Part shown: in pieces, positions 39,420 to 42,400 of the stretch
How positions within the stretch are numbered: the stretch's first letter is position 1
How the letters are laid out: each line of letters begins with the position of its first letter
DNA from: Lineus longissimus
Taxonomy: Eukaryota > Nemertea > Pilidiophora > Heteronemertea > Lineidae
Direction: 5' to 3'
Length of the DNA stretch: 64,000 nt
NCBI RefSeq assembly: GCF_910592395.1
Contig: NC_088313.1
Span: 20,044,437-20,108,436 of the forward strand
Notes under the pieces: generated by a model
What the model was told of the DNA's origin: nothing
Databases searched by the model: none
The model's input: only the letters and a program-made list of their open reading frames with translations
Position numbers and translations under genes: made by a program

Positions 39420-42400
39420 CTGAAAGAGAAAATGATTGCACATTTATATTACAAAGTTTTCAAAAAAGGTATGGGCAACTTCTTCACCTTGAGGTAGGCT
39501 TTGACTGGATAGTGACCCAATTTTAAAACTTTCTCTTTGGCACCCTTCTTGCCTTAATTCAGATGCAGTGTGGTATTAGTAATGTTTTCGAGGTATTACA
39601 CTACAGTGAATAGTAAGCTGTAGCCTACAGCACAGCTCCGCCACATGCCTCAGTCTAAGGCCCATGTCATCCCCCACCCGTATGTACAATTTGACCACGA
39701 ATGTGAAGATGAACATATGAATTTTTGTTTGAAATGCAATATTTGTTGTTTTTGTTGTGCTGGGGCGATTGATTGATTGGTTTTGGGATCTCCGGATCCA
39801 CGCTCCTGTAGTTAGAAATACATTAGTATGAAGATTCGCTTTGCCTTCAGTGGGGTAAACAAAGTTCACCTTTGCCAGCTAAGGGTATTGGACAGCACTA
39901 AGTAATGGTCCCTGTGGGTCTATCAAAAGTCCCTTCGGTATAATGGTTTACAACTATATGTACTATGATCGCAAATTTGTCTACAAATATGTCCCAAACG
40001 CCCCAGTCTACAGGTGTCCAATTGAGCGCCTAATCTGTACCGAATGACAGTGACTTTGTTACATAATGTATACTCATCTTAACAAGGAGATGGGAAATAT
40101 GTCCCTTAGGGACTGAGGATTAGTCAAGGCTATGGGCAGAGAGAAAGCTATCCTACCAGGCGATTAGAAATCACCCGCGTGCATCCACTGTCCGCAGCAA
40201 GACTAATTTTAGGATTTTGTATGTCCGGCAGCGTAACGTGACTCTTCTATTAAGTTTGTCCCATGTAGTTTAAATGTTTTATAATCACATACATGAGTCC
40301 ATAGCAACTCATGCCAAATCTATATGATATAGAGTTGTCTGACAACTGCACAGTTTCGGTGTATTCATACCCAGGAAAGGTTGCATAAAGAGTCTTGCTC
40401 AAGGAAGAAAACAATACTATACCTGCACAGTGCTTCATGGGTAAGCAGCACCCTGCAAAGGTCTGGATTTGTATCGCGGCATTCATACTTAATGGCCTGA
40501 AAATAAAAAGTGTCTTTTCTGAGGACTTAAATATGACTTACCTGCACATAATTTCATGTGTAAGTAGTACCCTGCGCATTTCTGGATTTTTATCCTGGCC
40601 TTCATATGCAATGGCCTGAAAGTATAAAGTTATCTAATGAGTAGGGATATCATTAAGAATATGCTATTGAGATATCCAGCGTTGGCGTTGCCCATTCTGA
40701 CGGACTGCGTTTCATAACGCTTTCCGAAAGGTACATGTAGTGCCGGAAGTGGTACCATCATCGATTGACGTACCTATGCGCACTACGTTTTTATATGGGC
40801 TAAAAATCAATTTGCCGAATCGTCGTTTGGAATTATTTTGAAAACGACTGTGCAAAATTGATGCTGAATGCATTACCTAATCGATAAGGCAATAATATGA
40901 AAAAACTCAAATCCATAAGTTCACCAAAAGCATTAGATCATACTACAATCAGTCATTAATCAATTCATTTAAAAAGTTTTGCATCACAAAAATACTTCAG
41001 ATGATTTTTCATTCCATAAACGATATTCAATTTCTGGTACGAGTTGGGGAAAATAGCCAACAATAGCTATCACTTAAAGTAATCCGGGGGCTTTATCAGC
41101 GAACAATAGCAAGTTATGACTGTATTCGTGTGGTAGAATCACAATGGAAAAGTCACCAGAGCCAAAAGGTTCTATGTCAGGCAAACATGATTCTGTTCGC
41201 TCCAATATCGCTGATTATCTGCAAACATCCATTCAATCAAAATCCATTTTATTACTCATTGAACAATGCGCGCCCCGGTATTAAATAAAGGCCCAGGATC
41301 AAAAATCTAATCCTAACATTGGATATTATAGTATTAGATGGAAAAGTACGTATCATATTTGATGGATCGACTATAACATGCATCATATACAACAATATAC
41401 TGATGTTTGCTGTTAAGTTAGCTTGGATGAGGATGCTGCAGAAATGAGGACGATTTCACTTCGGGCCATCTGGCTACTAGCGAGGCTGGTACAAAACTGA
41501 TCAAACACTGCGACACCAATTTCTATGTGGCAATTTTCATAATGAGTTCTGTAGATTTCATCATAAAATGAACGAAGAACTAGTGCATAACTATCTGTAA
41601 ATGTACATAAGAACTCGTTCATATTCATATGGAAAATGACGAAAATGTACTGTGATGTTTTTCACCTCAACAATACACATGCTTGTATAGTACATCAAGT
41701 GCACTGATTGTACATTTTGATGACGTAAACCTGATACTGTCTGAGGTTTATTTGCCTCCGTTCCATCATATTCCTACTGAACCATACATAATGGCCGCTG
41801 ATTCAACAAATATCATACAAACGAACAAAATTGATGCGATTATGGATCCCAGGTAACACGACAGGATCGCCATAGAGTCTTTTCTCAATTGCAGGACATT
41901 GGGAAATCTTACGTCAATGTTACCCTGTCCTCTTTTTTGCCGTATTACAGTATTACATGTACATGTATGTGTATGTTTTTATGCTTCAACCAACACTTTG
42001 AAGATCGGCATCAGTATAACATTGATTTTTTTATTTCAAATTGAAAAAAAATTTGAAACCCTACACGTATTATAAACATTTTCTTATAACTTGAAGTCAC
42101 AAATGGGTTACTGGCATCCAACTCCCAAAGTGGGGATGATGTTGATGGTGATGACCAATAATGGTGATGATGGTGATAACTGTTGGGAAAGAAAGGTTAC
42201 GATATGTTGCATCTGTTATATTGGTGATATGTCATCAAACTCTGGTGACTTATCAGAGAAAATGTGTATGACATAGTTTAAGAATGGCAGCCAGAGAGCC
42301 CACGGCAACTGGCACTGAATCTGGCCTCAACCTATGCAAATTGCTGAGAGAAATCGCTGCCAATACATTGGAAGTGATCACTGGCTACTGATCAGTCATT

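What the first reader, a model, noticed from the sequence alone, without database searches (positions are those of the whole stretch)
40423..40615. Predicted mutually exclusive exon pair in the COE zinc-knuckle region
Two 74-nt copies of COE exon 5 lie in tandem, each with acceptor, open frame and GT donor. Including both or neither shifts the frame of exon 6, and only 45 nt separate them, so splicing one to the other is sterically unlikely. Exactly one copy per transcript is therefore predicted. Each copy brings the His and first Cys of the zinc knuckle but different residues before and between them, so two COE proteins with different DNA-binding domains could be made. I know of no report of a duplicated exon 5 in COE genes.
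Basis: partly seen in the sequence, partly recalled or inferred. Interest (0 to 1): 0.9.

Follow-up and report, generated by a model that had tools for sequence, protein, structure and literature searches.

The report
Duplicated DNA-binding exon in nemertean COE
In a gene of the family that helps specify nerve cells, a ribbon worm carries two side-by-side versions of one small exon of the DNA-binding domain, arranged so that only one should fit into each protein; whether the second version is ever used still has to be shown with RNA.

Summary
On the minus strand, two 74-nt copies of COE/EBF exon 5 lie 45 nt apart (a 40542-40615, b 40423-40496; 56 of 74 nt identical), both open in the same frame with AG/GT borders. 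Including both or neither is predicted to stop in exon 6. Window exons 1-6 with copy a match database protein P0021, Lineus longissimus (Nemertea) COE isoform X2, so copy a is the annotated one and copy b is extra.

Copy b keeps His157, Cys161 and 9 of 11 residues invariant in 328 fetched COE proteins; it differs from the consensus at eight residues, six otherwise nearly fixed. No listed database protein carries b, but 90% clustering would hide such an isoform. Neutral simulations hint at past selection on b without proving it.

Best reading: a real tandem exon duplication, probably a mutually exclusive pair with a as default and b regulated or minor; an unused copy is the main rival. No RNA, relative's DNA or structure model could be examined. 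The kind of event is known; the paper searches made found no report of it in COE exon 5.

The parts
40542..40615 (-). COE exon 5, copy a: [24 protein letters not shown] plus 2 nt; phase 0 in, phase 2 out
   Evidence: identical to residues 135-158 of P0021
40423..40496 (-). COE exon 5, copy b: [24 protein letters not shown] plus 2 nt; same phases
   Evidence: 56 of 74 nt identical to copy a
40497..40541 (-). 45-nt spacer between the copies: donor GTAAGT of a and acceptor tract TTTTTATTTTCAG of b
   Evidence: all branch-point-like adenines within it lie at most 44 nt from its start
40417..40422 (-). donor of copy b, GTATAG; with the exon end 6 of 9 positions fit U1
40616..40635 (-). acceptor tract of copy a
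42744..42799 (-). COE exon 4 (56 nt)
39351..39419 (-). COE exon 6 (69 nt), carries the remaining Cys residues of the zinc motif (SRCCDKKSC)
50294..50357 (-). COE exon 3
50791..50941 (-). COE exon 2 (NAGNAG acceptor; P0021 fits the distal AG, start 50941; the proximal would start 50944)
53110..53240 (-). COE exon 1, coding part from ATG

Best explanation
The single exon coding residues 138-161 of the COE DNA-binding domain was duplicated in tandem in the line leading to this Lineus. Because the exon is asymmetric (phase 0 to 2) and the spacer is only 45 nt, the spliceosome can productively choose either a or b but not both. Copy a (strong donor) is the default; copy b (weaker donor, marginally better pyrimidine tract) is a regulated or minor alternative. 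It would give a COE protein with the same zinc ligands but an altered stretch just before and inside the start of the zinc knuckle. Shown: anatomy, phases, frame consequences, presence of a in an annotated protein. Inferred: that b is spliced in, that the choice is regulated, and that the two proteins differ in DNA binding or dimerisation.
For: Full-length duplicate with intact AG/GT, open frame and matching phases. Exon identity 56/74 against 16/45 ungapped downstream and 19/45 upstream in the flanking introns. b keeps 9 of 11 positions invariant in 328 proteins (columns, count) and all of Y141, R152, H157 and C161; under neutral change that keeps the frame open the last has probability 0.045-0.067. 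Y141 and R152 are sites of human EBF3 variants reported as pathogenic or damaging (PMC10020332, passages). An intact b with at least 9 of 11 invariant residues kept has probability 0.005-0.03 at 0.2 neutral substitutions per site; the threshold of 9 was set from the observed value. Exons 1-6 with a and with b match Pfam's COE domain at 310 and 294.1 bits, cut-off 27. Frame and short donor-to-branch-point distance are known in human pairs: of 629 clusters 377 (60%) have lengths not divisible by three and 57 (9%) a distance under 50 (PMC5740500, passages).
Against: No transcript evidence. The visible Lineus isoform X2 uses a. No listed hit carries b (best 120 of 2680; best 120 of 262), though 90% clustering hides isoforms. 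The spacer has only one strict branch-point match (yUnAy), 7 nt before b, too near; copy a has one at 22 and one at 37 nt. b's donor is weak. b departs from near-fixed G143, Q144, K146, E149, M150 and M160. dN 0.25, dS 0.54 between the copies (NG86), which by my own arithmetic leaves the b branch at roughly 0.5-0.9, not clearly below 1. Given 18 nucleotide changes, nine amino-acid differences are not significantly few (P 0.06-0.19). At 0.15 substitutions per site the simulated probability rises to 0.02-0.08.
Confidence: 0.5

Rival explanations
1. Copy b is a tandem duplicate that is not used, or no longer used: a dying exon that has kept its frame and splice sites by chance or because it lost its role recently.
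For: The isoform seen uses a; weak b donor and no strict branch point at a usual distance; eight changes from the family consensus, six at nearly fixed positions; amino-acid change count not significantly below neutral. The same gene carries an evidently dead partial duplicate of exon 2 at 51013-51058, so unused tandem duplicates do arise here. In human, 1,722 exons were newly predicted in introns in such a search and 654 confirmed as mutually exclusive with one read per junction, 358 with three (PMC5740500, section 5 read).
Against: Full length, no indel, both splice dinucleotides, open frame, 9 of 11 invariant residues: 0.005-0.03 under the simulated neutral model at 0.2 substitutions per site, 0.003 or less at 0.3 and above. 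Flanking intron is far more diverged than the exon.
Confidence: 0.32
2. Copy b acts in regulated unproductive splicing: its splice sites compete with those of a, and transcripts containing both or neither copy are frameshifted and degraded, which tunes COE level.
For: Both a+b and skip give stops in exon 6. U2AF1 is a published case where inclusion or exclusion of both duplicated exons gives decayed transcripts (PMC5224494, passage). This would need splice sites but little constraint on the b residues.
Against: a-to-b joining needs splicing of a 45-nt intron. Skipping needs no copy b at all. Retention in b of Y141 and of the stretch R152-E158 is not explained.
Confidence: 0.13
3. Assembly artefact or haplotypic duplication.
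For: Tandem duplicates can arise from unresolved haplotypes (general knowledge; not tested).
Against: 24% exon divergence and much more in the flanks, with COE exons in order on both sides.
Confidence: 0.03

Closest known systems
Vertebrate COE/EBF H2d-H2a tandem exon duplication (Daburon et al. 2008, PMC2394523; abstract, sections 10, 11, 14 and passages read)
   Same: Tandem duplication of one COE exon. The authors' first step is a stage in which either copy, but not both, can be used because of the splice phases.
   Different: Other exon (HLH helix 2, not the DNA-binding domain), other lineage. In vertebrates a new donor later let both copies be included; here no such second step is seen.
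U2AF1 exons Ab/3 (PMC5224494; passages read)
   Same: Duplicated homologous exons, few residue differences (seven there), both or neither gives stop codons and decay.
   Different: Other gene; both exons shown to be expressed there, not here.
OGDH exons 4a/4b (PMC7969005; passages read)
   Same: Mutual exclusion attributed to branch points too close to the upstream donor (below ~50 nt).
   Different: There the branch points were mapped by experiment and lie far from the acceptor; here only the 45-nt spacer length and patterns are known.
Human mutually exclusive exon clusters (PMC5740500; section 5 and passages read)
   Same: Neighbouring similar exons of similar length and same frame; frame rule.
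   Different: Validated by junction reads there; none available here.

Membership tests
COE/EBF transcription factor gene | COE DNA-binding domain (Pfam COE1_DBD) | tested here: met
   Exons 1-6: 310 bits with copy a, 294.1 with copy b, cut-off 27; model positions 2-169 of 231
COE/EBF transcription factor gene | IPT and HLH domains downstream | tested here: inconclusive
   Not found in this window; listed for P0021, which matches the window over exons 1-6
COE exon 5 | His and first Cys of the HCCC zinc motif, remaining Cys in exon 6 | tested here: met
   Both copies; E5/E6 split stated in PMC2394523 (passage)
Mutually exclusive exon pair | Adjacent, similar, equal length, same phase, open frame | tested here: met
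Mutually exclusive exon pair | Joint inclusion or joint skipping is non-productive | tested here: met
   By translation: frameshift and stop in exon 6 both ways
Mutually exclusive exon pair | Junction reads for each copy bridging the other | not testable with these tools
   No RNA data; only an annotated protein with copy a
Mutually exclusive exon pair | Constraint on both copies | tested here: inconclusive
Mutually exclusive exon pair | Conservation of the pair in relatives | not tested
   No animal genome DNA was reached (viral contigs: no relative; the genome search did not complete). The Tubulanus protein P0006 shows one canonical exon 5

The most novel reading that the evidence does not exclude
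A single nemertean COE gene makes two proteins with different DNA-binding domains by mutually exclusive splicing of exon 5. The b form carries K140, C143, R144, T146, D149, L150, A159 and L160, six of them (143, 144, 146, 149, 150, 160) at positions almost fixed across the sampled animal COE proteins, with all zinc ligands kept. It has altered dimerisation or target choice and is used in particular neurons or stages. This would be a route to COE diversity alternative to the vertebrate gene duplications.
Probability: 0.25. Interest if true: 0.72.

Novelty: new member of a known kind. Interest (0 to 1): 0.48.

Why it matters
COE factors are highly conserved developmental regulators; Daburon et al. 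found a single coe gene in all metazoans they studied except vertebrates (PMC2394523, section 10). A switchable exon in the DNA-binding domain would let one gene make two factors, and would be a living example of the intermediate stage that those authors inferred for the vertebrate HLH exon duplication. Even if b is dying, it shows that a duplicated asymmetric exon in an otherwise nearly frozen domain can persist, open and with splice sites, to 24% divergence.

Tried and rejected
Chance similarity: rejected, next best match 36 of 74. Bacterial-type promoter/terminator scan of the region: uninformative. Rfam: 0 matches in the window at gathering score. TRF at the default score does not report the pair. 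The three best-scoring hits of the b search (P0001, P0002, P0003) have part of the COE domain repeated in one chain: in P0001 two canonical exon-5 segments, in P0002 a canonical and a disrupted one, in P0003 the exon-6 stretch twice. They look like assembly or gene-model errors, carry nothing like b, and are at 77-79% identity. Viral contigs: no COE relative. The genome-contig collection (bacteria and archaea) was not scanned. Structure prediction of P0021 never ran. Of the paper searches on this point, none listed a COE exon-5 duplication; for most papers only the listing was seen, and one search listed 15 of 415.

Full report
What is there. The window carries, on the minus strand, the first six coding exons of a COE (Collier/Olf/EBF) gene: exon 1 53110-53240, exon 2 50791-50941, exon 3 50294-50357, exon 4 42744-42799, exon 5 in two copies (a 40542-40615, b 40423-40496), exon 6 39351-39419. 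Later exons were not found in the window (tblastn with P0021 at E up to 1), so intron 6 seems to reach beyond the window edge. With the distal AG of the exon-2 NAGNAG acceptor and copy a, the translation agrees with residues 1-182 of database protein P0021, transcription factor COE3-like isoform X2 of Lineus longissimus. P0021 is at 99% over residues 1-140 of the query; the others listed are at 83% or less where the whole stretch is covered and at 85% or less where about 90% is. The window is therefore most likely from that species, a heteronemertean with a published 391-Mb genome (PMC8593623, start of abstract in the listing, passage search; taxonomy).

The two copies. They are 74 nt each, 56 of 74 identical, 45 nt apart. 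The next best ungapped match of copy a in the window is 36 of 74. The similarity runs 15 nt into the acceptor tract and 3 nt past the donor (92 nt, 78%). Beyond that the flanks are only weakly alike (16 of 45 downstream and 19 of 45 upstream ungapped; the gapped scores were reached by 1 of 300 and 0 of 300 shuffles). This fits a tandem duplication of about 119 nt whose intron parts have largely drifted apart.

Why only one should be used. Exon 4 ends in phase 0; exon 5 has 24 codons plus two bases. Exons 1-4 + a + 6 and 1-4 + b + 6 read open; a + b and skipping both stop in exon 6. The spacer is 45 nt in all. The adenines in it that fit a loose branch-point pattern lie 4 to 44 nt from its start, and the single strict match (yUnAy) lies 7 nt before b. 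All are under the ~50-nt limit cited for joint recognition of donor and branch point (PMC7969005, passages; PMC5740500, passages). So direct a-to-b splicing is unlikely and would be non-productive. The same result counts against b: it lacks a strict branch point at a usual distance, whereas a has strict matches at 22 and 37 nt; a branch point inside exon a or a degenerate one would be needed. In human, 377 of 629 clusters have lengths not divisible by three and 57 a potential short distance; joining reads are nevertheless found for some frame-incompatible pairs (passages).

What b changes. In EBF numbering (as used for EBF3 in PMC10020332, passages; placed here by alignment), exon 5 codes residues 138-161. 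Against the consensus AI(I/V)[18 protein letters not shown](I/V)MC, copy a differs at A140 and R151; copy b at eight: K140, C143, R144, T146, D149, L150, A159, L160. Across 328 of the 330 fetched proteins (best-scoring hits of three searches, not a random sample), 11 of the 24 positions never vary; b keeps 9 (columns, count). Positions 143, 144, 146 and 160 have at most two exceptions each and are changed in b; position 159 is Ile or Val in all 328 and Ala in b. Arg at 151, as in copy a, occurs in 3 of 328, P0021 included. Kept in b are Y141 and R152 (human EBF3 variants Y141C, suggested in cited earlier work to alter the dimer interface, and R152C, reported with lowered reporter activity; PMC10020332, passages), and H157 and C161 (zinc ligands; the exact ligand numbers are recalled, the split of the HCCC motif over exons 5 and 6 is from PMC2394523). 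The stretch 151-158 is identical to the consensus in b, while a and b differ there by three silent changes and, at 151, Arg against Cys. Both forms of exons 1-6 match the COE domain model, 310 and 294.1 bits, and the solved COE1 domain over the whole tested stretch.

Is b under selection? Evidence points both ways. For: intact borders, frame and length and at least 9 invariant residues kept have joint probability 0.005-0.03 in a neutral simulation at 0.2 substitutions per site, 0.02-0.08 at 0.15 and 0.003 or less at 0.3 and above. Indels were taken at 0.05-0.15 per substitution, an assumption, and the threshold of 9 was set from the observation. Keeping Y141, R152, H157 and C161 has probability 0.045-0.067 given an open frame. 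Against: nine amino-acid differences among 18 nucleotide changes are not significantly few (0.06-0.19); dN 0.25 and dS 0.54 between the copies leave the b branch near neutrality if nearly all replacements are on it, as the family alignment suggests. A copy that was used for long and dropped recently would look the same.

Is b used? No RNA could be examined. P0021, an annotated isoform, uses a. Two searches with b in place gave 2680 and 262 hits; among the best 120 listed of each, no protein is closer to the query than 87% and 85% over the 71-residue region. The database is clustered at 90%, and an isoform differing at nine residues would be merged with P0021, whose cluster has 6 members. Splice signals suggest a as default: donor CAGgtaagt, 9 of 9 with U1, against CAGgtatag, 6 of 9; exon 2 of the same gene has 5 of 9 and is in P0021, so b's donor should be usable. 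Pyrimidines upstream are 11 of 17 for b and 10 of 17 for a, both below the 12-13 of the other exons measured.

Mechanism. I put one half on a true mutually exclusive pair with a as default, 0.32 on an unused copy, 0.13 on a role in unproductive splicing. The most interesting form, two COE proteins with different binding or dimerisation used in different cells, gets 0.25.

Known context. Daburon et al. 2008 (PMC2394523; abstract, sections 10, 11 and 14, and passages) describe the ancestral seven-exon DNA-binding domain, note that all its exons except E6 are asymmetric, and propose for the vertebrate HLH duplication a first stage in which either copy but not both could be used. The Lineus exon 5 pair has the structure of that stage, in another exon and lineage. 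A term search of that paper for 'exon 5' and 'mutually exclusive' gave no occurrence. Searches listed no report of a duplicated COE exon 5; a term search of a paper on protostome coe genes (PMC3117877) found no 'isoform' or 'alternative splic'. The library holds open-licence papers only.

Verdict. The anatomy is real and correctly read; the functional claim is plausible and unproved. It is a new case of a known kind.

Noticed in passing
51013-51058 (-): A 46-nt, 83% copy of the start of COE exon 2 lies in intron 1, without an evident acceptor: a partial, evidently dead tandem duplicate in the same gene.
   Followed up: partly
50985-51009 (-): A second, acceptor-like fragment of the exon 2 border; splicing with exon start 50992 would be in frame and add 17 residues ([17 protein letters not shown]) relative to P0021, which lacks them.
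   Followed up: partly
50942-50947 (-): NAGNAG acceptor at exon 2; P0021 fits the distal AG, giving one residue less than the proximal one.
   Followed up: partly
25999-26394: Minisatellite with a ~54-nt unit that leaves frames open on both strands.
   Followed up: no
25304-25453: Nearly palindromic 21-nt repeat (TATCTCGAGCGATCGAGATAT), seven copies.
   Followed up: no
P0133 (Owenia), P0169, P0122 (Liolophura), P0131 (Branchiostoma): Position 151, Cys in 320 of 328 COE proteins, is Arg, Arg, Gly and Gln in these and Arg in Lineus copy a; what this position does is unclear.
   Followed up: no
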